Positions 660 through 9,971 of a stretch of 10,673 nt of DNA are shown piece after piece. Position 1 is the stretch's first letter, and the number at the start of each line of letters is the position of its first letter. This stretch comes from Thermofilum sp. (GTDB lineage: Archaea; Thermoproteota; Thermoprotei; Thermofilales; Thermofilaceae), in assembly GCA_020832965.1 (NCBI GenBank), contig JAJHRM010000072.1, positions 1-10,673 on the forward strand, written 5' to 3'. The translations under genes were made by a program, and so were the position numbers. The notes under the pieces were generated by a model, which was given only the letters and a program-made list of their open reading frames with translations, searched no databases and was not told where the DNA came from.

Positions 660-683
660 CCGCAGCGCGCGCCCCGCGCCAGT

Positions 684-692
684 GATATATAG
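684..692. promoter_or_regulatory. Shared TATA box between divergent genes
   Basis: GATATATAG is nearly symmetric. It sits about 29 bases from the minus-strand ATG at 659 and about 33 bases from the plus-strand GTG at 721, so TBP bound here could serve both directions. Its position also argues against starting the plus-strand gene at the earlier GTG at 682, because that would put the TATA box inside the coding region. Confidence 0.55.
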
Positions 693-720
693 CCCTGTGC
701 ACGGCTCGCTGCGAGGGCGC

Positions 721-2208
721 GTGGAGCTTGGCGCGAGCCTGGAGCTCTGGGGGGCTCTAGAGGTTGTCTCGTCCAGGCTAACCGAGCTTGCGAGGGAGAC
801 TTGCCGAGAGCTGGGCCTGGATCTCGGTGTAAGCGCTCTAGCATCCCTTGAGCGCATCTACGAGGACAGCGAGTACGGGCGCGAGATCTGCGGTTACTAT
901 GACCCAGTGAGGAGGCTCGTAGTGGTCTCCCTGCCGTGCCTGGCGGAGGAGGAAAAGAAACTCGCGGGTCGCCTCGCCGAGACGCTCGCGCACGAGCTCG
1001 TCCACCACTGCCAGTTCACGCGCGGCCCGCTGTGCGAGGTCCACCTCGACCCCGGGCTCGCCGCCAGGGTGGACGCGGCGCTGCCCTACAGGCTCAGGCC
1101 CCACGAGGTCGAAGCCTACGGGAAGCAGCGGGAGCTAGCCGAGAGGCTGCGGGGGGTAAGGGGCTTCGACGAGGCGGTGGGCTACGTGAGACGGTTGCTC
1201 TCTCCCGAGGTGGTGCTCCCGCTGAGCGAGGTCGCCAAAACTCTGAGCAAAGCCCCAGCGCTCAAAGAGTCAGCTAGGCTCATCGCAGAGCTCACTGGAG
1301 AGGACCTGCTATCAGCCGTAAGAAACCTAGAGAAGCGGCTAGTTACAGAGGATGAGACGGTCAGAGAGTGCTACAGAAAGGAAATAGCCGGCTACCTGCA
1401 GAAAATCGAGAGAAACCCTGCCGACGTGGTCGCCGAAGAGCTAAGGAAGAGAGCAGAAACCTTCCTGTCACAAAAAGTAGAGGGGGGCAGAGCCAAGATC
1501 ATTATTACAGATCCCGGCATTGCCCAGCCGCGTGCTTATGTAGTCTCTAACAATGGCATAGCTATCGGCTTTGATTTGAAGAAAGGAGCACCACCGCTTC
1601 TTCCTCTACTCCTGGAGACCGCCGGCTGGGGTCCCTCGTTCAAAGAGCCCATAAGGCTGCAGATGACTCTTGCTCAGATCCTGAAGGGAGCCGTCAGAGC
1701 TGGGAGCCACGAGTTCAGAGTAAAAGTTCTACCTCGGGAGAACATAAACGTATGTAAAGAACTTTACAAAGAGCTTTACAACGAGTACTGGAAAGAGCAC
1801 TGGCTTGCTGCTGATGTGCTCTTAGCTCTCCTCTTACTCAGCGGCTGGAAGATGCAAGCTCTTGAGAGCAGGAAGTTCGGGGAAGCTGAGTGCTTTGCCG
1901 TCGCAGTGGAGGATCCAGGGGGCATGGAGCGTTTGGAACTCATCGTGCCCAGCAACGTGAGAGTCAAGGATGAAAGCCTAGGCATCGATGCGCCGCTTAA
2001 AGATGCGGTGGAGAGACTAAAGAGCGAGGAGAGCTCCAGAGACTTCATCATAAGATATTTCACAGAGGATCTCACTCATAAAATTATTTTCAAATGCAAT
2101 GAGAAGCTGAGGAAGAAAATGCTTGAAGAATTAGCAGAGGAATTAAATCAGCTATTAAAGGTTTTGGAGGAATTCGATGGGAAAGAAAAGCTAGTACCAG
2201 AAGTCTAA
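721..2208 (+). CDS. Putative zinc metallopeptidase-domain protein (HELVHH) with a long uncharacterised C-terminal region
   Basis: The protein has 495 residues from GTG 721. I chose this start because the frame's earlier GTGs (682, 697) overlap or crowd the TATA box at 684-692, while 721 lies about 33 bases downstream of it. Residues 87-96 contain LAHELVHH, the HExxH zinc-binding and catalytic motif of metallopeptidases. About 32 residues later RPHEVEAYG (127-134) offers a Glu as third zinc ligand, as in gluzincin-like enzymes. The remaining roughly 340 residues are unrecognised: helical around 170-260, then a more strand-rich part, then a Lys/Glu-rich helical tail. There is no signal peptide or membrane segment, so it should be cytoplasmic. 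The first third is very GC-rich and the last third clearly less so, which may mean a composite origin. The glycosylase remnant follows after 22 bases. The substrate is unknown; the motif alone makes peptidase activity likely, not certain. Confidence 0.7.
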   Translation: MELGASLELWGALEVVSSRLTELARETCRELGLDLGVSALASLERIYEDSEYGREICGYYDPVRRLVVVSLPCLAEEEKKLAGRLAETLAHELVHHCQFTRGPLCEVHLDPGLAARVDAALPYRLRPHEVEAYGKQRELAERLRGVRGFDEAVGYVRRLLSPEVVLPLSEVAKTLSKAPALKESARLIAELTGEDLLSAVRNLEKRLVTEDETVRECYRKEIAGYLQKIERNPADVVAEELRKRAETFLSQKVEGGRAKIIITDPGIAQPRAYVVSNNGIAIGFDLKKGAPPLLPLLLETAGWGPSFKEPIRLQMTLAQILKGAVRAGSHEFRVKVLPRENINVCKELYKELYNEYWKEHWLAADVLLALLLLSGWKMQALESRKFGEAECFAVAVEDPGGMERLELIVPSNVRVKDESLGIDAPLKDAVERLKSEESSRDFIIRYFTEDLTHKIIFKCNEKLRKKMLEELAEELNQLLKVLEEFDGKEKLVPEV

Positions 2209-2230: not shown

Positions 2231-2695
2231 ATGCTGAGAGGGGATGACTCGCTGAGAAACGCTCTTCAAGACTTAGTCGGGGAAATAGTCAAATGGTGGC
2301 GCAGGATTGGCGCTAGAAAGTACCCCTGGAGGGAGGTCAATGATCCATGGCACGTCCTCGTTGCCGAAGTCCTCCTAATACAAACCAATGCAGCAAAAGT
2401 GGTCAGGGTGTATGAGGAGTTTGTGAAAAAGTACTCCATACCAGCGCACTTCGCCGAAGTCTCTGAGGTGGAGGAGCTGCTAAGGCCGCTCGGTCTCCAC
2501 AGGCAGAGAGCTAGGCTACTGAAGCAGGCTGCCGAGTTCCTCTGCCGCGAATACGGCTGCCGGGTTCCTGACTTATACGGAATAGCGCAGACCCCCGGGG
2601 GGTTATTCAAGATGTTGAGCACTCCTTCGCTAACGAAATCCCAGGTGATACGCTCTTCGAGAGCGTGTGTGACTTGGCGAGCTGCTCTGAAGTAA
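2231..2695 (+). pseudogene. Truncated DNA glycosylase of the MutY / Nth / mismatch-glycosylase (HhH-GPD) family
   Basis: Intact members remove mismatched or damaged bases (A opposite G/oxoG, or T/U opposite G) in base excision repair. The N-terminal half is recognisable: RKYPWREVNDPWHVLVAEVL (residues about 29-48) matches the family's PWR...DP...EVLLQQT segment, followed by the helical stretch to GCRVPD. A degenerate hairpin (QTPGG) then appears and similarity stops. The catalytic Asp expected about 20 residues after the hairpin (VDxNV in relatives) and the C-terminal four-cysteine 4Fe-4S loop are both missing. The last 40 or so residues look out of frame. Another frame of the same DNA reads VIQDVEHSFANEIPGD, ending at the TAA at 2703-2705. 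At 154 residues it is shorter than the usual 210-230 or more. It is therefore probably an inactive remnant, perhaps co-transcribed with the metallopeptidase gene 22 bases upstream. Confidence 0.7.
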
Positions 2696-2918: not shown

Positions 2919-4265
2919 TTATATAGCAAGCATGGATTCCAAAATTAGCTCTTTAATATACGATCGGAGCCAAAGCTCAGCCTCATATATAGGGTAAAAT
3001 TCCGTGAAAATTCTAGTTCCATGTGTAGAAGGTATAGGGTATTTTTCAACCACCACTCCCTTCAAAATTTTATAGAGTAATTTGCCTCTATCATTAGATA
3101 AATTAGCAAATTTGTTTGGAAATATTTCTGTAAAAACTTTATTTAAGAAATCATTCAGATACCAGTCCTCATTTTCCCTACATATATTTGGTAGCGGTAT
3201 ATCAAATCTGGCAACCATCGACATATTAGAAATTACCCTTTCCCTATAAATTTCGGATAATTCTGGTCTTAAGACCGTAAATGCAGATAACGTCGCTCTC
3301 ACTAAATCCTCCAGCTCGCTTTCATCTACACTTTCCTGTCTTAAGGATCTCACCACCGCACTCATAGGATAAACAACAAAAATCTGTTCTTCTGTATTAC
3401 GGTTGAATACTGCATAAAAAGTATCATCTGAAGGAACCTTGTAAACTCTTTTAACACATCCTACAACATTCTTCAACATATTATACGAAACATTTTTATC
3501 ACTAAGCTCATAGAGGCCCCTAATCTTCTCACTTACAAGTTTTGCGTAAATATGTAATGGCGAAATAGGGCCATCAAATGCTATCAAGTAATTATCAACA
3601 CTCTTGCTATTTTTTAATATATGAAGAACACCTACCTCAAGAATTCTCATTATGATCTTAGCTTCATCGCGGGCTCTTACTCTCACATACCCTGTTCTTA
3701 AGAGATCCTGCTTCTCGATAGTTCTAGTATCTCTCCCGAAGCTCACCGATGTGTCCAGCCATGCATCTTTCCCTAATCTCCCCAGGTTGTCAAAAAGAGG
3801 TTTGGCATCATTAAGTCTAGCACCTGGTGGTGGCTCAAGACTATTATCCATTTCTTTCAATGTTGTATATGGAAAAGCTATGAATCTTAACAAAGTAATA
3901 CTATTAGTCACAGGTCTGATTTCCCCTTCATCGGTTCTTTCGAAAACTCCAGCTCCGCAAACAACTAAATGTATAGGCACTGTTATTCCTTTAACATTTA
4001 TTTTTCTAATTACCCTTGTTTCTACAATTCCATCGATAAAATATTTGAATTGAATATCAGATTGCGATATTTCTTTGAATTTAATTTTTATTATTCCTCC
4101 ACTAGTTTGCAAAATTAATTCTTTTGAGGCTGTCGGAATATCTTCCGCATATTCTTCGGGCTCTTCTTGGAAGACCAGCTCTCCTTCATACTTTCTATCT
4201 AATTTACTTAAATATGATGAAAGTTCATCAAATGTGCCATAAATTTTTATAGAATTATAGCTCAT
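2919..4265 (-). CDS. NurA-like nuclease, last gene of the defence operon
   Basis: The protein has 448 residues. NurA proteins are Mn-dependent RNase H-fold nucleases that work with the hexameric HerA translocase to degrade DNA. Family signs are YFIDGIVETR (75-84), which matches the first conserved block with its catalytic Asp (D78); YLIAFDGPI (226-234), which matches the second acidic block (D231); and VVGCVKRVYKVP (267-278), which matches the conserved Lys strand. It is longer than the housekeeping archaeal NurA and differs from it, so it looks like an operon-specific variant. Its ATG overlaps the end of the HerA-like gene by 11 bases and is preceded by GGTGA six bases upstream, so the two are translationally coupled and probably form a complex. 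There is no signal peptide or membrane segment; it should be cytoplasmic. The family call rests on motifs alone; the adjacent HerA strengthens it. Confidence 0.65.
   Translation of the reverse strand: MSYNSIKIYGTFDELSSYLSKLDRKYEGELVFQEEPEEYAEDIPTASKELILQTSGGIIKIKFKEISQSDIQFKYFIDGIVETRVIRKINVKGITVPIHLVVCGAGVFERTDEGEIRPVTNSITLLRFIAFPYTTLKEMDNSLEPPPGARLNDAKPLFDNLGRLGKDAWLDTSVSFGRDTRTIEKQDLLRTGYVRVRARDEAKIIMRILEVGVLHILKNSKSVDNYLIAFDGPISPLHIYAKLVSEKIRGLYELSDKNVSYNMLKNVVGCVKRVYKVPSDDTFYAVFNRNTEEQIFVVYPMSAVVRSLRQESVDESELEDLVRATLSAFTVLRPELSEIYRERVISNMSMVARFDIPLPNICRENEDWYLNDFLNKVFTEIFPNKFANLSNDRGKLLYKILKGVVVEKYPIPSTHGTRIFTEFYPIYEAELWLRSYIKELILESMLAI
4215..4230. repeat. Perfect palindrome inside the 5' end of the NurA-like gene
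   Basis: TGATGAAAGTTCATCA consists of 7-base arms around an AG centre. Its outer bases (TGATG...CATCA) match those of the palindrome in the divergent promoter. It lies within 50 bases of the gene's start, in coding sequence for a plausible peptide, so it may be chance. Confidence 0.3.
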
Positions 4266-5994
4266 TTTGAGTCACCATATTCGTAGATAGGCTTTCTCTC
4301 ATAATATCGTTTATCGGCGGTGGGAATGATAGGATTAATGGTTGAAGATATATCGGATGATGAACTAGTACTTCGCCTTTCCCTAAATATCCAGCAGTAT
4401 TCCTTAGCTCCCCAAATATCTTATACATCTTCTCCTCCAATTCGGCAAGTGGCATCCTACCTACCACTAAAGTGCCGGTGTTACCCAGCACTTGGCTGTC
4501 TATATCGCTTGGGAATTGCTCGGCACCGAACAGAGACACCCTAAGATCTCTACCTCTCGCAGCTATTTCTACGAGAATCTTTTTTATAGGAGATTTCGAG
4601 GTTGGAGCATACTTATTTAACTCATCAACTATTATCACAAAAGCTTTATCCTTACCCTTTCTCTGCATTTCTTCAGCAAACCTTAAGATGTCATTGATCA
4701 CACATGAAACTATAACCCTCTTTTCGACATCGCTCAATCCATAGAGTTGTATGACATTTACTCCTTTCACAAGACCATCAGCACGAATAGGACTCGACGA
4801 GGGCGCTGAGCGGTCGATAATGTGCTTAGCCCTCTCCAAAAAGCCGTCTAAACGTCTCATAACCGCCTCGACGGTTCTAGGATCGGGACTCATCTCTTGC
4901 AATATGCGTGCACAAATATTCTGAGCAGAGTCGCTGTGAGTGCCAGAGCGGCTGGGTTTCGATGATGCTCGTTCTGCACGTAAACATTCGAGAACCTGTC
5001 GCAAAGTATTCATAGAGGGGCGAAGGTGAGAATACTCGGCAATGATGTTCATTATCTTTGTTATAAGGTTCATTTGTAAAATTGAAGCCTCATCCTCCTC
5101 TTCAAAGAGCCCCGCTATAAGGCCTTCTGTACCTAGATCCAACAACCCATAAGAATATACCTGAGCATTGCTCATGAACTCCGGCTTATTGCGGTAGGGG
5201 TCATCCTGGTAAGTAAAATACTTTATATTATTCCTGTAGTTATACATAGCATTAAAAATTTCTTTATACATTTGTTTATAAATCTGTAATGTTTCATTAT
5301 CTATCCCTTTATTTCTTCCCCATGCTTCAATACATTTGTCTAGATCATTTTCTGAATCTGGAATCCTATGTAATCCCATAAAGTCTAATCGTTTAACATT
5401 AAAAGCTATTATATATATTTCTTGTTGAGTTCTTTCCATATATTCTATTAATGAAAACATTAGGAATCTCAAATAACTGGTCTTTGCAGCTAACCCTGAC
5501 ATACCACCTACATTCAGATGAGCCCCCTCAGGCCCCAACAAGAAGTCTGCGTAGTAGAAAGCTGGTATTGGTTCGCGTCCTTTAAGGAAACCAGCTAGTA
5601 TACGTTTATTAGGATCAGGTATAAGCGATTTCCATAGGGCATCTGTATCGGATCTTTCTGGAAGTTTTATGGCATAAGCTTTATCGAAAGTTTCATTCTT
5701 CAATTTCACAAGAATATTTATAGAAGCTTTTCTGAAAAGTCTGGGCTTTGTAGCGGGTTGCCCCTGCGTCAACCTTATGCCGAGACTCGCGTACTCGAAT
5801 TTATCCACCGCGGAATACACTTCCACGTTCGATACCACGCCGATTGCCAGAGGAGAACCGTCCTGAGACACAATAGTTACCACGTCTCCCTCTCTAACGG
5901 ATTCATCGAGAAGATCCGCGTATATCTTTGTCGTGCGCATAGGTGATTCTCTAGAAATCACCACGTACCCGACGTATTGTTGCGCGTTTACCAT
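4255..5994 (-). CDS. HerA-like hexameric ATPase/DNA translocase with an unusual Walker A
   Basis: The protein has 579 residues from ATG 5994. An in-frame GTG at 6003 exists, but GGTG at 6001-6004 sits six bases ahead of the ATG, so I prefer the ATG. Residues 8-60 (YVGYVVIS...GDVVTIV...PLAIGVV) look like the HAS-barrel of HerA. The Walker A region (about 163-173) reads GGMSGLAAKTS, lacking the usual GK[ST] glycine. Walker B is VIIVDELNKYAP (about 453-464). AARGRDLRVSLFGAEQFPSD (about 478-497) matches the HerA arginine-finger and sensor segment, followed by VLGNTGTLVVGRM. HerA proteins pump DNA through a hexameric ring and feed NurA; the NurA-like gene directly follows and overlaps. The middle region (about 180-440) is long and helical, perhaps an insert. 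It resembles the helicase role of DptH in phosphorothioation-linked restriction, but is far smaller. I am confident of the superfamily and less so of the subfamily. Confidence 0.8.
   Translation of the reverse strand: MVNAQQYVGYVVISRESPMRTTKIYADLLDESVREGDVVTIVSQDGSPLAIGVVSNVEVYSAVDKFEYASLGIRLTQGQPATKPRLFRKASINILVKLKNETFDKAYAIKLPERSDTDALWKSLIPDPNKRILAGFLKGREPIPAFYYADFLLGPEGAHLNVGGMSGLAAKTSYLRFLMFSLIEYMERTQQEIYIIAFNVKRLDFMGLHRIPDSENDLDKCIEAWGRNKGIDNETLQIYKQMYKEIFNAMYNYRNNIKYFTYQDDPYRNKPEFMSNAQVYSYGLLDLGTEGLIAGLFEEEDEASILQMNLITKIMNIIAEYSHLRPSMNTLRQVLECLRAERASSKPSRSGTHSDSAQNICARILQEMSPDPRTVEAVMRRLDGFLERAKHIIDRSAPSSSPIRADGLVKGVNVIQLYGLSDVEKRVIVSCVINDILRFAEEMQRKGKDKAFVIIVDELNKYAPTSKSPIKKILVEIAARGRDLRVSLFGAEQFPSDIDSQVLGNTGTLVVGRMPLAELEEKMYKIFGELRNTAGYLGKGEVLVHHPIYLQPLILSFPPPINDIMRESLSTNMVTQNEL
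4272..4276 (-). promoter_or_regulatory. Ribosome-binding site of the NurA-like gene
   Basis: GGTGA on the minus strand, six bases ahead of the ATG at 4265, lies within the last codons of the HerA-like gene. It supports both the start and translational coupling. Confidence 0.7.
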
Positions 5995-6000
5995 CTTCCA

Positions 6001-6004
6001 CACC
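6001..6004 (-). promoter_or_regulatory. Ribosome-binding site that decides the start of the HerA-like gene
   Basis: GGTG on the minus strand is six bases ahead of ATG 5994, the same spacing as for the other two inner operon genes. It would overlap the alternative GTG start at 6003, making that start unlikely. Confidence 0.65.
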
Positions 6005-7030
6005 TTATCCGGCTACCTTTAATAATCCTCGCGTAAAACTTCCAAAGTCAACTTTTAAGCCTTTCGCCGTAGCTAGCCACAGAACCATGCTTGCAAGTTC
6101 ATGGCGAATAATGAAGCTCCTGACCCCTGGCTCTACCTCGTCGATAACACTCGCCGGTAGGCGCTGCTCGTAACTTACAACGTCAATTAATGTTGAACCC
6201 GATAATCGGAATGTCTCAAGACTGCTCGCTATCTTTTCGTTAGCAATTTTCCATAATATTTGATGATAGTTAGCTAACAGATATAATCTATCATATATCT
6301 CCTGAAGTTCTAGATGTGATAATTCTTCAAACTTTTTCAAGAGATATATACCAGGTACAGTTATCGTCACATGATATGCTGAACCAGGTAAAATCTTAGC
6401 CCTTCTTCCAACATCCGAGCCAATGAAGTGAATCCTTCGATGGATTGTAGGTGCAATGCTTGTGAGCAAATTACATGTTGCTAGGAAATCATGAATCTCT
6501 CCAAGAATAGAATAAATCATCAGCTTATTTTTTTTATCAAGTTTTATGAAATCATGGAAGGACATAGATTTGTAGAAAATATAAAGGCTACTTCTTTCAA
6601 GAGTTAAGAGCCAAGTAGTTGTAAACTCATTAAGCTTTAGCAATACATTCCTTAACGCTGAAGGAATCAATATATAATTCTCATTTTCTGTATATACATG
6701 ATAGTAAGCATAAACTAATAACGATGTTAATTGTACTTGAAACTCTGGAAAGCTTTCAGGTATTTTTCCAAATAATTCTACCCACATATTTTTAATCAAT
6801 TGTTCATCGATATTTAATATTCGTTTATTTTTAATTTTTTCAGTTAATAACTCATAGAAAATTATGCCTTTAGTAGCATAATACGGATCATCAATTACTG
6901 TAATTTTATAGTTTAAAGCATCATTAAGAATCCTTTGGTAAACTTCTGTTCTTCGTTGAGAAATTCTTTTAGGATTATAAAAGATGTTTATTAGATCCCA
7001 TAATTCTTTACCTTTATAGTCATTATTCAT
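6005..7030 (-). CDS. Uncharacterised 341-residue protein, second gene of the defence operon
   Basis: I do not recognise a family. The protein is about 341 residues, rich in Ile, Leu, Tyr and Lys, largely helical and without a clear signal peptide, membrane span or cysteine cluster. Residues 170-210 hold a His/Arg-rich patch (THRRIHFIGSDVGRRAKILP, about 200-219) that could contact nucleic acid. The middle (LRNVLLKLNEFTTTWLLTLE) looks like a helical bundle. It starts at ATG 7030 with GGTGA six bases upstream, in the stop codon of the ATPase gene, and ends 10 bases before the HerA-like ATG. This packing makes it an obligate operon member, probably a subunit of the same complex. It sits where DptG (also of unknown function) lies between an ATPase and a HerA-type helicase in Dpt modules. 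That is an argument from position only; I see no sequence similarity to DptG. Confidence 0.75.
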   Translation of the reverse strand: MNNDYKGKELWDLINIFYNPKRISQRRTEVYQRILNDALNYKITVIDDPYYATKGIIFYELLTEKIKNKRILNIDEQLIKNMWVELFGKIPESFPEFQVQLTSLLVYAYYHVYTENENYILIPSALRNVLLKLNEFTTTWLLTLERSSLYIFYKSMSFHDFIKLDKKNKLMIYSILGEIHDFLATCNLLTSIAPTIHRRIHFIGSDVGRRAKILPGSAYHVTITVPGIYLLKKFEELSHLELQEIYDRLYLLANYHQILWKIANEKIASSLETFRLSGSTLIDVVSYEQRLPASVIDEVEPGVRSFIIRHELASMVLWLATAKGLKVDFGSFTRGLLKVAG

Positions 7031-7036
7031 TTTCGA

Positions 7037-7041
7037 TCACC
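7037..7041 (-). promoter_or_regulatory. Ribosome-binding site of the 341-residue protein gene
   Basis: GGTGA overlaps the TGA stop of the preceding ATPase gene and lies six bases ahead of ATG 7030, indicating coupled translation. Confidence 0.7.
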
Positions 7042-8773
7042 TACGCTCCAGGATATCTTCAATTATTTCCCTAATTTTACTTACATATCTTTCTTCATAT
7101 ATTTTTCTTAATGCCTCCTTAAACTCTTGAGGTAAACCTCGAGTTAGTTCAGACCCGCTGGCACCGGGAGCCGAAGCTAGTATCGCCGCTAACGTTAGGC
7201 CATCCTCTATGGGCAAAGGAACTATAAGGTCATACAGTGCAGCTTGCAAACGAGAAACCCACTTGACGTTAGGGGTGTACACGAGAAGTATTTTAGTTGG
7301 TGAAGCTCTAATATCTTGTTCTGTTAGATGAAACTTAGAAAGTATCTTTCTTCTATCAAGCTTCTCAACATTGATGTCCGTTAGTCTCGCCCACACAATT
7401 AACCTTAGCGCTGTACTCCCTCTTTCACCTTTGATGAATACCTCATACGCCTTATAACCTTTTGCCCGAGATATTGGAGAAGGTTGTAGCACGCGACCTC
7501 TATAAATATTTCTATAAATCCTATGAATTTCTTTAGCAGTAATTTCTGAAACCATATCAGCGTACTTAGAAATTCTATCAAATCTTCCGGAAAGTATATC
7601 ATTCAATTCTTTTGATAATCCTATTTCAAATAAGAGCATGCCTGGAGGAGTAGTTATAGTTATTTTACTAAAAATATCTTCTAAAACTCGATTTTTAACA
7701 ATTTCAGGTGGCTTTAGCTGTTGCAATTCACTTACGAAATTAGGATACATAGCTATATATTGGGCTATAATGCTACTTAATATTTGTCTTATGAGGGCGA
7801 TTTTTAATCTAGTATTATTTAAATTCATTTTTTCTATTTCATTTACGATATCTTCTATACTTTTCTTGGTAAATATTTTTTCGGTTTGATTACCAATCAT
7901 TCTGTTTAGAAGATCATTAATATACCTCTTCATGTCATCTTTAGTTATTGGGTCTAGCGTCTTGATAATTCCTATTACCCCATGAGTCCTTGAGATGCCC
8001 GGTTGTGTCCTGACTTGTTCTAAAAGTGAAGCAAACCTAGCACGCGCATATTCCTGTAACAGTAAAACGATAGTCGGGTAACGCGTGTTTCCCTTGCTCA
8101 AAGCTTGGTCATGAATTACTCTAAATAGATATAGTACCTTGCCTAACCTATCAATTGAGAAAATTTCTTCCACGTCTTCTAACTCATCTAAGATCACTAT
8201 AAGTTTACTATTAATTTTTCCTAAAACAGCTCTAGCTATATCCAGGAGGCTTCCTGTGTAATCATTAGCATCCAAATCACATGTTTGTGGAAGCGTAGTT
8301 AATATTTCATCTATCCCTACTGTATTAGGAGAAAAGATTACCGGAAGGATTATTGATAAAAACTTTCTTGCATCCATAGGCAATGATTCTTTTGAAAGTG
8401 GCGTCATGTTGCCATAGAACCTTTTGATAAAATTCTGGTAGTCTTGATTCACTTTTGAGTAAACGATAGATAAAGGAATATATGTCACATAATACTTGTA
8501 AGCAGAATCGCTGTATAGCAGTTGTTTCGACCTTCTATACAGTAGTTTTCCAGTAAAGCTTTTCCCCTGCCCCCAATCACCAGCTACTACGAAAATTGGC
8601 AAGCTCGCACCTAGTATCTCGTCTACTATTTTTCTTGGAATCAGCACTGGATTCTCTTCTAGTGAAAGCAGACAACCATCAGTAAGGTAAGTTAAAGTTT
8701 CTACGATTAATGGTATAATTGCTGCTCGCATATCATCAAGGGATTGCGAAATATTCGGGCTCGCTGCGGGCAT
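7037..8773 (-). CDS. AAA+/ORC-like P-loop ATPase, first gene of the defence operon
   Basis: The protein has 578 residues. Walker A is GDWGQGKS (65-72), just after a hydrophobic strand (LPIFVVA). Walker B is KLIVILDELEDVEEI (190-204), with Asp196 and Glu197. A sensor-1-like strand PTIVLLLQEYARARF follows (233-247), then LDPITKDDMKRYINDLLNR (about 275-293), which resembles the lid of ORC/Cdc6- and STAND-type ATPases. The C-terminal half (about 370-578) is uncharacterised and may form a recognition or winged-helix region. Such ATPases act as ATP-driven sensors or loaders on DNA; leading position in the operon fits a role like DptF of phosphorothioation-linked restriction or the P-loop proteins of BREX-type systems. 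The ATG at 8773 has no Shine-Dalgarno sequence; the divergent TATA box would give a leader of about 12 bases. The fold is clear, the exact family is not. Confidence 0.75.
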   Translation of the reverse strand: MPAASPNISQSLDDMRAAIIPLIVETLTYLTDGCLLSLEENPVLIPRKIVDEILGASLPIFVVAGDWGQGKSFTGKLLYRRSKQLLYSDSAYKYYVTYIPLSIVYSKVNQDYQNFIKRFYGNMTPLSKESLPMDARKFLSIILPVIFSPNTVGIDEILTTLPQTCDLDANDYTGSLLDIARAVLGKINSKLIVILDELEDVEEIFSIDRLGKVLYLFRVIHDQALSKGNTRYPTIVLLLQEYARARFASLLEQVRTQPGISRTHGVIGIIKTLDPITKDDMKRYINDLLNRMIGNQTEKIFTKKSIEDIVNEIEKMNLNNTRLKIALIRQILSSIIAQYIAMYPNFVSELQQLKPPEIVKNRVLEDIFSKITITTPPGMLLFEIGLSKELNDILSGRFDRISKYADMVSEITAKEIHRIYRNIYRGRVLQPSPISRAKGYKAYEVFIKGERGSTALRLIVWARLTDINVEKLDRRKILSKFHLTEQDIRASPTKILLVYTPNVKWVSRLQAALYDLIVPLPIEDGLTLAAILASAPGASGSELTRGLPQEFKEALRKIYEERYVSKIREIIEDILERR

Positions 8774-8786
8774 ATTCTAGCCACTA

Positions 8787-8799
8787 TGATGTCACATCA
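8787..8799. promoter_or_regulatory. Palindromic candidate operator in the divergent promoter
   Basis: TGATGTCACATCA is a perfect inverted repeat with 6-base arms and one central base. It overlaps a tandem hexamer CATCAGCATCAG (8795-8806) that runs up to the TATA box. For the minus-strand operon it lies between TATA box and expected transcription start; for the plus-strand gene it lies just upstream of the BRE position. A dimeric regulator bound here could affect both. No regulator gene is in the cluster. Confidence 0.5.
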
Positions 8800-8807
8800 G
8801 CATCAGG

Positions 8808-8815
8808 TATAAATA
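8808..8815. promoter_or_regulatory. Bidirectional TATA box for the DndC-like gene and the four-gene operon
   Basis: TATAAATA reads TATTTATA on the other strand, so both strands offer a TATA box. Its centre is about 28 bases from the plus-strand GTG at 8840, giving a leaderless transcript. In the other direction transcription would start near 8786, 12 bases before ATG 8773. No other TATA-like element occurs in the 66-base spacer, so one box probably serves both sides. Confidence 0.65.
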
Positions 8816-8839
8816 GCTGTCCCTCCACTCAATAAGGAC

Positions 8840-9841
8840 GTGGAAGCAAGTCTTATCATCGATAGAATATTCGATAAATCTGTGGATTTTATTAAGAAAA
8901 TTTCAAAACATTATGGTAAACTACCGTGGGTTATAGGGTTCTCTGGCGGTAAAGATTCCACAACCGTCGTTCATATAGTTATGGAAGCCATCAAAAGGGG
9001 AGCAGAGCCCAGCAAGATTTACGTCGTCTACGAGGACACCCTCTTGGAACACCCTCTGTTGAGGCAGAGCGCGCTTGAAACGCTTGCTTCTTTGCGGAAA
9101 GTTTCTCAAGAAGAGCTCGACGGGGTAATCGAGCCTGTGGTTCTAAAGCCCGCTCCGCGTGAGGATTTTATCTCTATGATGGTCCTAAAAGGATACCCAG
9201 CACCAGGACCGAGGTTCAGGTGGTGCACGCGCGTGCTGAAGCTCAACCCCCTCAAAAATTTCGTGCGCTCGCTCGGAGAATTCGTTATGGTGTCGGGCGT
9301 TAGGCTCAATGAGAGCAGCTACAGGAAGGCTAACTTGAAAAGTAGAAAGCTTGCAGAGACACCAGTGACTGAGATAAGCTTTGCCGGTACTAAAGCTATC
9401 GCGGTTATGCCCATACTTACGTGGAGCGATGATCATGTATTTAGATTTTTATCGAGCACTGATAGATGGGATGGGAAAAGCTATGATTATATTTTTGAAC
9501 TTTATGGGTTTGATAAGCCCTTAGATGCCATGCCGATCACTGTGAGGTACGGCTGTTGGGTGTGCACAGTTATAAGAAGAGAGAAAACTCTTCTTCCTGA
9601 AGTATTGCTTAAGGCTAAAGAGCAACTATTTTATGTTGCTAAAAGAGAACAACGATATCGCGAGAAAAAACGTGGCAAGTTAAACATAGAAGGTAGAAAA
9701 GCTGTTGCTAGTGTTTTCCTTCAAGCGCTGCATGATGCACCAGAAGCTTTTGGATATGATATAGAAAAATTGCAAAAATTCCTAAAACTTATTATTGATG
9801 ATTACGAGAAAGCTAGAAACATATGGTATGAATTGTATTGA
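8840..9841 (+). CDS. dndC: Compact DndC-like sulfurtransferase (PAPS reductase / PP-loop family)
   Basis: DndC-type proteins use ATP-pyrophosphatase chemistry and an Fe-S cluster in putting sulfur into the DNA backbone (phosphorothioation). The protein has 333 residues. Its PP-loop is SGGKDS (35-40); GxRxxES (153-159) is the second PAPS-reductase block; PRFRWCT (124-130) and RYGCWVCTV (236-244) are the DndC-type cysteine motifs. Only three cysteines exist in the whole protein (129, 239, 242), all in these motifs, which would allow a three-cysteine 4Fe-4S cluster with one free iron. Bacterial DndC has close to 500 residues, so this is a shortened form. The GTG start lacks an SD and lies about 28 bases after the TATA box, so it is probably leaderless. 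It is divergent from the ATPase/HerA/NurA operon and shares its promoter. DndA, DndD and DndE are not present here. A role in sulfur modification of RNA or a small molecule is the main alternative. Confidence 0.8.
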   Translation: MEASLIIDRIFDKSVDFIKKISKHYGKLPWVIGFSGGKDSTTVVHIVMEAIKRGAEPSKIYVVYEDTLLEHPLLRQSALETLASLRKVSQEELDGVIEPVVLKPAPREDFISMMVLKGYPAPGPRFRWCTRVLKLNPLKNFVRSLGEFVMVSGVRLNESSYRKANLKSRKLAETPVTEISFAGTKAIAVMPILTWSDDHVFRFLSSTDRWDGKSYDYIFELYGFDKPLDAMPITVRYGCWVCTVIRREKTLLPEVLLKAKEQLFYVAKREQRYREKKRGKLNIEGRKAVASVFLQALHDAPEAFGYDIEKLQKFLKLIIDDYEKARNIWYELY

Positions 9842-9848
9842 AATATGC

Positions 9849-9971
9849 ATGCTTTGCGTTGCCATGTTCTTCAGCAGTACGGAGACGGTTAAGCTTTTGA
9901 TCAAGTGCGGAGCGGAACGGGGGGCTGCTGCGTGCCGTGTGAAGTATGCCGAGGTGTTCGGCAACCCCTGA
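9849..9971 (+). CDS. Possible 40-residue protein of unknown function
   Basis: A short frame from ATG 9849 (or ATG 9864) to TGA at 9969-9971 follows the DndC-like gene by 7 bases. Its part ETVKLLIKCGAERGAAACRV followed by KYAEVFGNP looks protein-like and has two cysteines. No ribosome-binding site or TATA box stands out. It may be a small real gene, a remnant of a longer one, or chance in GC-rich DNA. Confidence 0.25.
   Translation: MLCVAMFFSSTETVKLLIKCGAERGAAACRVKYAEVFGNP

What the first reader, a model, noticed from the sequence alone, without database searches (positions are those of the whole stretch)
2919..9841. Divergent DndC-like / ATPase / unknown / HerA-like / NurA-like cluster: a candidate sulfur-modification-linked defence system
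Seen: a DndC-type PP-loop protein diverges from four overlapping or abutting genes, two of them ATPases of different types, one nuclease-like and one unknown. Known: DNA phosphorothioation modules pair DndC-containing modification genes with a restriction part including ATPases and a HerA-type helicase (DptFGH), and archaea have Pbe-type variants. Inferred: this cluster is a compact version in which translocase and nuclease are separate HerA-like and NurA-like proteins. DndA, DndD and DndE are missing from the window, so either they are elsewhere or the chemistry is simplified.
Basis: partly seen in the sequence, partly recalled or inferred. Interest (0 to 1): 0.85.

Follow-up and report, generated by a model that had tools for sequence, protein, structure and literature searches.

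The report
Sulfur-enzyme-linked HerA–NurA defence cassette
A probably heat-loving archaeon carries a five-gene, apparently imported cassette that pairs an enzyme of the kind that puts sulfur into DNA with a DNA pump and a likely DNA-cutting enzyme, perhaps a self/non-self antiviral system in a combination we did not find described.

Summary
The five genes are real and at the stated places. They form an AT-rich block (33-43% G+C) between 54-62% G+C flanks: a NurA-like protein, a HerA-type DNA pump, an unknown protein and an Orc/Cdc6-like AAA+ ATPase in one tight operon, divergent from a short DndC-like PP-loop enzyme. The link looks more than chance: among 229 related genomes this HerA type, this NurA type and the short DndC-like family occur in the same two. 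G082 has an intact DndC-like gene beside HerA-NurA. G483 has a decayed locus in the window's order, with a DpdA-HerA-NurA-Mrr cassette between its remnants. Neither genome, as held, has DndE, nor DndD over cut-off. The DndC-like family is a clade apart from canonical DndC, and the window's own branch lacks the two extra DndC cysteines. Membership in Dnd, Dpt, Pbe, Ssp or BREX is not supported. Best reading: a modification-linked HerA-NurA restriction system whose marking enzyme is swappable (PP-loop; DpdA; methylase in viral contig L250). Chemistry and antiviral function are inferred. New variant of a known kind; interest 0.62.

The parts
2919..4265 (-). NurA-like nuclease candidate (last gene of the operon)
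   Evidence: (29% to the G082 orthologue, E 2e-31); D77, E209 and D230 shared by six aligned rows; own family and PDB searches without significant hit; negative
4255..6003 (-). HerA-type DNA translocase nearest in PDB to Deinococcus HerA; Walker A variant GMSGLAAKTS, Walker B IIVDELNKYAP
6005..7030 (-). Unknown protein; search returned 5 proteins, its own included
   Evidence: AlphaFold mean pLDDT 55.6, mostly helical, not usable; possible remote relative next to the G134 ATPase (hhalign E 2.6e-4, prob 42%; BLASTP no match)
7037..8773 (-). AAA+ ATPase of the Orc/Cdc6-like initiator type (model residues about 12-392) with a C-terminal alpha/beta domain
8774..8839 (.). 66-base divergent intergenic region between the operon and the DndC-like gene
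8840..9841 (+). Short DndC-like PP-loop enzyme: SGGKDS, Cys129, Cys239 and Cys242 kept, the two extra DndC cysteines and the C-terminal part of DndC absent

Best explanation
A modification-linked restriction (defence) cassette. Steps inferred: the DndC-like enzyme, a PP-loop protein predicted to hold a three-cysteine iron-sulfur cluster, activates its target with ATP and puts sulfur on host DNA (phosphorothioate or a thiolated base) without DndD or DndE. The Orc/Cdc6-like ATPase, with the unknown protein, detects or loads onto unmarked incoming DNA. The HerA hexamer then pumps that DNA into the NurA-like nuclease, which degrades it. Steps shown here: the gene set, its linkage in two related genomes, the fold of the ATPase core, the families of the HerA and DndC-like proteins, and a sharp base-composition step that suggests arrival as one block. 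The marking enzyme appears exchangeable around HerA-NurA: PP-loop here, DpdA in one relative, DNA methylases in a viral contig.
For: Three-way co-occurrence: HerA type 2 of 229 at E 1e-12, NurA type 2 of 229 at E 0.001, short DndC-like in the same two (intact at 474 bits in G082; broken in G483, assigned by 59-92% identity to P0018). G082 was found through DndC and its proteins are rows of the HerA and NurA search alignments, so G483 is the one independent case. The G483 relic keeps the window's order: NurA, HerA, a stub of the unknown, then DndC-like on the other strand. Among 262 loci held at the end, the window NurA and unknown hit only G082/G483 loci at E 1e-4; HerA hits these plus three plasmid loci and L250; the 79 other genome loci and 79 viral loci fetched through DndC gave none. 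ATPase homologue P0011 and DndC-like homologue P0016 are each on one contig, both of 8086 bases, the only equal length among 12 and 15 compared: probably one contig, not seen. An ATPase relative in G134 lies on a contig with DndB and a PAPS-reductase-family protein. Viral contig L250: Eco57I-type methylase, NurA-like, HerA, N6_N4 methylase in a row. G+C step. No DndE and no DndD over cut-off in G082 or G483.
Against: No function is tested. UBA164 has the short DndC-like gene without the other four in 21 kb. G082 has no ATPase match in its genome at E 0.001, so the five-gene set is not fixed; I have seen all five intact together only in the window. The G134 ATPase has no HerA, NurA or short DndC-like partner on its 9.8-kb contig. 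Two annotated plasmid HerA homologues sit beside SbcD and an SbcC/SMC-type gene, a repair setting. NurA identity rests on a weak chain (negative, 110 weak). The window's branch lacks the cysteine dyad thought to carry sulfur in DndC, so phosphorothioation in particular is uncertain.
Confidence: 0.5

Rival explanations
1. A HerA-NurA DNA repair or mobile-element DNA-processing module that happens to neighbour a PP-loop gene in a defence or mobile island.
For: The nearest solved HerA is studied as a DNA end-resection protein with NurA; of 6 plasmid records with a HerA relative I looked at 3, and the 2 with annotation have sbcD and an SbcC/SMC-type gene directly after HerA; an Orc/Cdc6-like ATPase fits replication or transfer; G082 carries a VirArc_Nuclease gene beside DndC-like.
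Against: No SbcD/SbcC among the window proteins scanned; the same three protein types occur in the same two of 229 genomes; methylases flank the pair in L250; other NurA-family genes exist elsewhere in the G082 and G483 genomes.
Confidence: 0.2
2. The DndC-like enzyme acts on RNA or a small molecule, not DNA; the four-gene operon is a separate HerA/FtsK-type capture defence.
For: PAPS-reductase-like or DndC-like genes occur in 22 of 50,697 phage records (their neighbours were not looked at) and without HerA-NurA in UBA164; the three-cysteine pattern is also that of other PP-loop sulfur enzymes (recalled); the dyad is missing.
Against: Best models are DndC; tRNA-thiolation models score 0.013-0.14; linkage to HerA-NurA in two genomes.
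Confidence: 0.17
3. A broken-off or scattered canonical Dnd system, the remaining Dnd genes being elsewhere in the genome.
For: DndC homology; the window holds only 10.7 kb and its genome is not held.
Against: Separate clade with support 99/96 against canonical DndC at 100/99; no DndE and no DndD over cut-off in G082, G483, G001 or G134 as held, with G363 as positive control.
Confidence: 0.06
4. Mark-sensing rather than mark-sparing: the cassette attacks DNA that carries an invader's modification, or the DndC-like protein is itself a sensor.
For: A system in which the effector relies on phosphorothioate marks exists (SspE; start of the abstract of PMC9646914); no dyad for sulfur transfer in this branch.
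Against: The PP-loop and the three cluster cysteines are kept in 30 of 30 aligned rows, which suggests catalysis.
Confidence: 0.07

Closest known systems
HerA/FtsK 'capture' systems (Rakesh, Aravind and Krishnan 2024, PMC10853773; abstract, section 22 and passages seen)
   Same: HerA-type translocase with an Orc/Cdc6-family ATPase, a nuclease and a fast-evolving partner
   Different: Nuclease is NurA-like, no REase recognised; HerA nearest in PDB to the Deinococcus one; a DndC-like enzyme is linked; NurA is not mentioned in that paper's main text (0 occurrences)
HerA-NurA of Deinococcus radiodurans (PMC9960219, passages seen)
   Same: HerA family, Walker variants, adjacent NurA-like gene
   Different: Studied in DNA end resection; no Orc/Cdc6-like ATPase or PP-loop enzyme in the passages seen
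DndABCDE phosphorothioation
   Same: PP-loop and three cluster cysteines of DndC
   Different: No DndD/DndE recognised; separate clade; no C-terminal part; no cysteine dyad in the window branch
BREX-related capture (BRC) systems (PMC12839542, passages seen)
   Same: HerA translocase combined, in a subset, with a DNA-modification enzyme (TGT)
   Different: No PglZ, DUF6079, DUF4007 or STAND protein recognised in the window; PP-loop enzyme in place of TGT
DndCDEA-PbeABCD (PMC6459918, passages seen)
   Same: Archaeal, linked to DndC
   Different: None of the four Pbe proteins has a recognised counterpart here

Membership tests
Dnd phosphorothioation (DndABCDE) | DndC over the curated TIGR03183 cut-off | tested here: not met
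   154 bits against 290; own clade
Dnd phosphorothioation (DndABCDE) | Five conserved cysteines including the dyad | tested here: not met
   Window keeps 3 of 5; the 24 canonical rows have the two further columns at 100% and 96% Cys
Dnd phosphorothioation (DndABCDE) | DndD and DndE beside DndC | tested here: not met
   No such NCBIfam hit in 14 of the 26 window ORFs that were scanned; relatives G082 and G483 have no DndE and no DndD over cut-off
Dnd phosphorothioation (DndABCDE) | DndD and DndE anywhere in the window's genome | not testable with these tools
   Genome not held
DptFGH / DndFGH | DndH-type multidomain protein, DndF and DndG | tested here: not met
   582-aa HerA protein matches only the C-terminal ATPase part of DndH; no DndF/DndG hit in the seven proteins scanned
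PbeABCD | PLD-helicase PbeA and AAA PbeC with two small proteins | tested here: not met
   Family searches against the description
Ssp / BREX type 4 | SspB, SspC or PglZ, BrxC, BrxL partners | tested here: not met
   No such hits in the seven window proteins scanned; SspD 2.4e-10 and BrxP 2.6e-12 score far below DndC
HerA-NurA pair | HerA-family translocase | tested here: met
   Walker motifs
HerA-NurA pair | NurA-family nuclease in the same operon | tested here: inconclusive
   Operon place and 11-base overlap; weak chain; negative
HerA/FtsK capture systems | Orc/Cdc6-family AAA+ ATPase with HerA | tested here: met
HerA/FtsK capture systems | Inactive REase domain after the AAA+ core | tested here: inconclusive
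   C-terminal alpha/beta domain; two Foldseek rows for MspJI, E 8e-4 and 2e-3, TM 0.16 and 0.15; domain not folded alone
HerA/FtsK capture systems | Active REase-type nuclease | tested here: inconclusive
   No REase family recognised in the five proteins, but the unknown protein has no usable model; a NurA-like protein is present instead
DNA phosphorothioation activity | Sulfur in host DNA | not testable with these tools
   Needs mass spectrometry

The most novel reading that the evidence does not exclude
A class of restriction systems in which one HerA-NurA DNA-shredding engine is paired with interchangeable marking chemistries: here a stripped-down DndC-like enzyme that works without DndD, DndE and the cysteine dyad, in one relative a DpdA-type deazaguanine enzyme inserted into the same locus, in a viral contig DNA methylases. 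The Orc/Cdc6-like ATPase would be the loader or sensor.
Probability: 0.3. Interest if true: 0.82.

Novelty: new variant of a known kind. Interest (0 to 1): 0.62.

Why it matters
If right, DNA sulfur marking could exist in a minimal form, without the DndD-DndE core around which known Dnd modification systems are built, and HerA-NurA, known as a repair engine, would also be a restriction engine. Both claims are directly testable by mass spectrometry of DNA and by virus challenge. It would also give thermophilic archaea a new kind of modification-linked immunity.

Tried and rejected
Rejected: Pbe, DptFGH, Ssp and BREX type 4 (partners not recognised). Canonical Dnd with lost genes. CysH or tRNA-thiolation enzyme.

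Led nowhere: AlphaFold of the unknown protein (pLDDT 55.6). NurA profile against PDB, bacterial NurA-like profile and the second NurA of G483: no significant match; that second NurA is itself only just over the Pfam cut-off (21.2 against 21 bits) and is not among the rows. ATPase profile in viral contigs: none of 60 candidate stretches. ATPase and NurA in 72,556 plasmid records: none. ATPase profile: 1 of 398 phylum genomes and 1 of 229 class genomes, the latter 51 residues of an 1138-aa frame, doubted. A REase-like C-terminal domain of the ATPase was considered and left open. No tRNA and no notable repeats in the window.

Literature: HerA + NurA + DndC found 0 papers; DpdA + HerA + archaea 1; HerA + Cdc6 + phosphorothioat + defense 4. 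Searches gave no description of this combination in their listings, nor did the passages read of PMC8175902, PMC4158269 and PMC6563490. Only open-licence PMC was searched, and listings were capped; Iyer et al. 2004 on FtsK-HerA is not held, and I recall, without having seen it, that it discusses HerA-NurA neighbourhoods.

Dropped before counts: the tree used 72 of 73 rows (one partial DndC-like ORF left out); its canonical and archaeal rows were a hand-picked part of the ORFs found; the cysteine table covers the 30 rows of A1.
Full report
Observation. All five ORFs exist as described. The four minus-strand genes overlap or nearly abut (11-base overlap, then gaps of 1 and 6 bases) and the DndC-like gene diverges across 66 bases. 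G+C is 33-43% over the five genes against 60.5% for bases 1-2207, 54% for the HhH-GPD ORF, 58% for 2700-2918 and 62% to the right: one imported block is the simplest reading.

DndC-like protein. PADLOC DndC 1.4e-47, PRK06850 3e-47 and TIGR03183 4.9e-45, the last below its cut-off; the broad Pfam PAPS_reduct domain 1.9e-12; specific CysH and tRNA-thiolation models are near chance. A search of 5.8 billion proteins gave 1796 relatives, best 120 listed. In a tree of 72 proteins, 32 short proteins form one clade (99/96) apart from 24 canonical DndC (100/99) and 15 other archaeal ones, which fall in two groups; the short set was chosen from the top hits of the window protein, so its unity is partly by choice. 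All 30 rows of A1 keep SGGKDS, RWC and GCWxC. In E. coli B7A DndC, Cys146, 280 and 283 hold the cluster, with Cys262 and 273 conserved in addition and Cys273 predicted as the fourth ligand (PMC12193691, passages); another paper speaks of a distinct cysteine dyad that likely receives the sulfur (PMC10853773, passage). My equation of the two is inference. The window keeps the first three and neither of the others. Between W[DN]G and GCW, 9 of 30 rows have no cysteine (window and close relatives), 2 have one, 18 have two, 1 has three. The loss is therefore special to the window's branch; G082 keeps a CxC.

HerA-like protein. Nearest solved structure: Deinococcus HerA, 4.8e-33, with the same unusual Walker A type (window GMSGLAAKTS, Deinococcus GISGVATKTS) and DELNKYAP Walker B. 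Other models are weaker: mad8 4.8e-11, DndH 5e-6, HerA_Thermprot 9.7e-8.

NurA-like protein. Own searches give nothing significant. Indirect evidence: the orthologue in G082 (29%, E 2e-31) rings PF09376 below cut-off; a NurA-like protein beside a related HerA in viral contig L250 matches the profile at E 1.6e-6 and Deinococcus NurA at 0.035; the gene before HerA on a cyanobacterial plasmid matches Deinococcus NurA at 2.5e-22; across six aligned rows F75, D77, G78, E209, D230 and G231 are among the invariant residues, the order D-E-D expected for a NurA metal site (recalled). Direct profile comparisons with two bacterial NurA-like proteins and with the second NurA of G483 were not significant.

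Unknown protein. Five proteins found, its own included, 52-100% identical; one is named as from Thermofilum sp., which suggests the window's lineage. Structure prediction failed.

Linkage. In 229 genomes of one class: HerA profile 2, NurA profile 2, DndC-like profile at 1e-40 in 9. Of these 9, G082 (474 bits) is of the short family by score; the broken copy in G483 (174 bits, partial) by 59-92% identity of its pieces to P0018; the other seven score 146-179 bits. So the same two genomes carry all three. G082 was found by DndC and feeds the HerA and NurA alignments, so only G483 is independent. G082 (L185): HerA 5690-7624, NurA-like 7639-9006, convergent DndC-like 9029-9955, then a VirArc_Nuclease gene. 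G483 (L196/L215): NurA-like and HerA each in two frames, a stub of the unknown (residues 286-339), then a 415-aa Mrr-type protein, a 662-aa unknown, a canonical HerA, a NurA just over the Pfam cut-off, a divergent DpdA, and the rest of a DndC-like gene in pieces without its start. The second cassette thus lies between the two remnants and has the same divergent layout. DpdA rings in 1 of 229 genomes, this one. Frameshifts in an unnamed assembly may be sequence errors. A tblastn of the window proteins on all 262 loci held found NurA and unknown only in G082/G483 loci, and HerA also in three plasmid loci and L250.

Against linkage. UBA164 (L001) has a short DndC-like gene near a conjugation-type ATPase and none of the other four in 21 kb (the conjugation reading is by eye). 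The ATPase is not found in G082 and, in G134, sits with DndB, a PAPS-reductase-family protein and a GHKL-like protein instead (GHKL below its cut-off). All five genes intact together were seen in the window only.

No DndDE. Of six genomes searched, TIGR03185 is over cut-off only in G363, next to its canonical DndC; TIGR03184 rings only there, at 66.5 bits, just under its cut-off of 71.85. G082, G483, G001, G134 and G172 have no DndE match and no DndD over cut-off, with weak sub-threshold DndD matches in four of them. Completeness of these genomes was not told. G082 also lacks a class V aminotransferase in the 450-bit range seen in G483, G134 and G363 (its best is 144 bits), so its sulfur donor is unknown.

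Generality. Viral contig L250: Eco57I-type methylase (1127 aa), NurA-like, HerA, N6_N4 methylase, all on one strand in a row. Two plasmid homologues with a NurA-like gene before and sbcD and an SbcC/SMC-type gene after HerA show the repair alternative. In G462 and G452 another DndC-like protein adjoins three genes conserved between the two genomes (41%, 37% and 25% identity): a DpdJ/BrxHI/DrmA-like helicase, a protein with a weak DrmC/PLD match, and a 300-aa unknown (only the G462 proteins were scanned). Modification enzymes and effector engines therefore look exchangeable.

Known systems. The nearest precedent is the HerA/FtsK capture class with Orc/CDC6 ATPases (PMC10853773, section 22) and the BRC systems combining HerA with TGT (PMC12839542, passages). 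NurA does not occur in the main text of either. A 2026 survey of 7747 archaeal genomes (PMC12988326, passages) mentions neither HerA nor NurA in its main text.

Verdict. Real, probably non-random, and a combination of known parts that I did not find described. The mechanism (sulfur mark spares host DNA; loader, pump and nuclease destroy unmarked DNA) is inference at about 0.5; phosphorothioate as the exact mark is lower.

Noticed in passing
L196:1873-9801 (L215:8972 onward), genome G483: A Mrr-type protein, a 662-aa unknown, canonical HerA, a NurA just over the Pfam cut-off and a divergent DpdA lie between remnants of a DndC-like/HerA/NurA locus: apparent replacement of one modification-linked HerA-NurA cassette by another.
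   Followed up: partly
L250:2944-10592 (IMGVR_UViG_3300045912_000930): Methylase, NurA-like, HerA and second methylase genes in a row in a contig classed as viral; a PAPS-reductase-like gene with DUF3440 further along (15763-16983).
   Followed up: partly
L203, genome G134 contig C51: Relative of the window ATPase with a 312-aa partner on a contig with DndB (PF14072), PAPS reductase (PF01507) and a GHKL-like ATPase (below cut-off): another candidate sulfur-linked defence set.
   Followed up: partly
L197:3376-10957 and L200:2877-10469: A DndC-like protein of a sister group adjoins three genes conserved between two genomes (41, 37 and 25% identity): DpdJ/BrxHI-like helicase, about 800-aa protein with weak DrmC/PLD match, about 300-aa unknown.
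   Followed up: partly
window 2231-2695 (+): HhH-GPD (MutY/Nth-like) ORF that ends early at 154 aa; matches PADLOC type II nicking endonuclease at 6.7e-16.
   Followed up: no
window 682-2208 (+) and L214: 508-aa protein with an HELVHH motif (by eye). Relatives of it and of the HhH-GPD ORF lie near the two ends of the L214 stretch of G172, around another DndC-like gene and a helicase, which hints at an older defence island.
   Followed up: partly
L001:10001-10987 (UBA164): Short DndC-like gene without the other four, near a conjugation-type ATPase (by eye) in what looks like an integrated element.
   Followed up: no
L215:4045-4584 (G483): ORF downstream of the decayed NurA-like gene that looks by eye like a tyrosine recombinase, a possible route of cassette exchange.
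   Followed up: no
phages collection, e.g. PQ109078.1 (Thermus phage Tsatsa): PAPS-reductase/DndC-like genes in 22 of 50,697 phage records; neighbours not examined.
   Followed up: no
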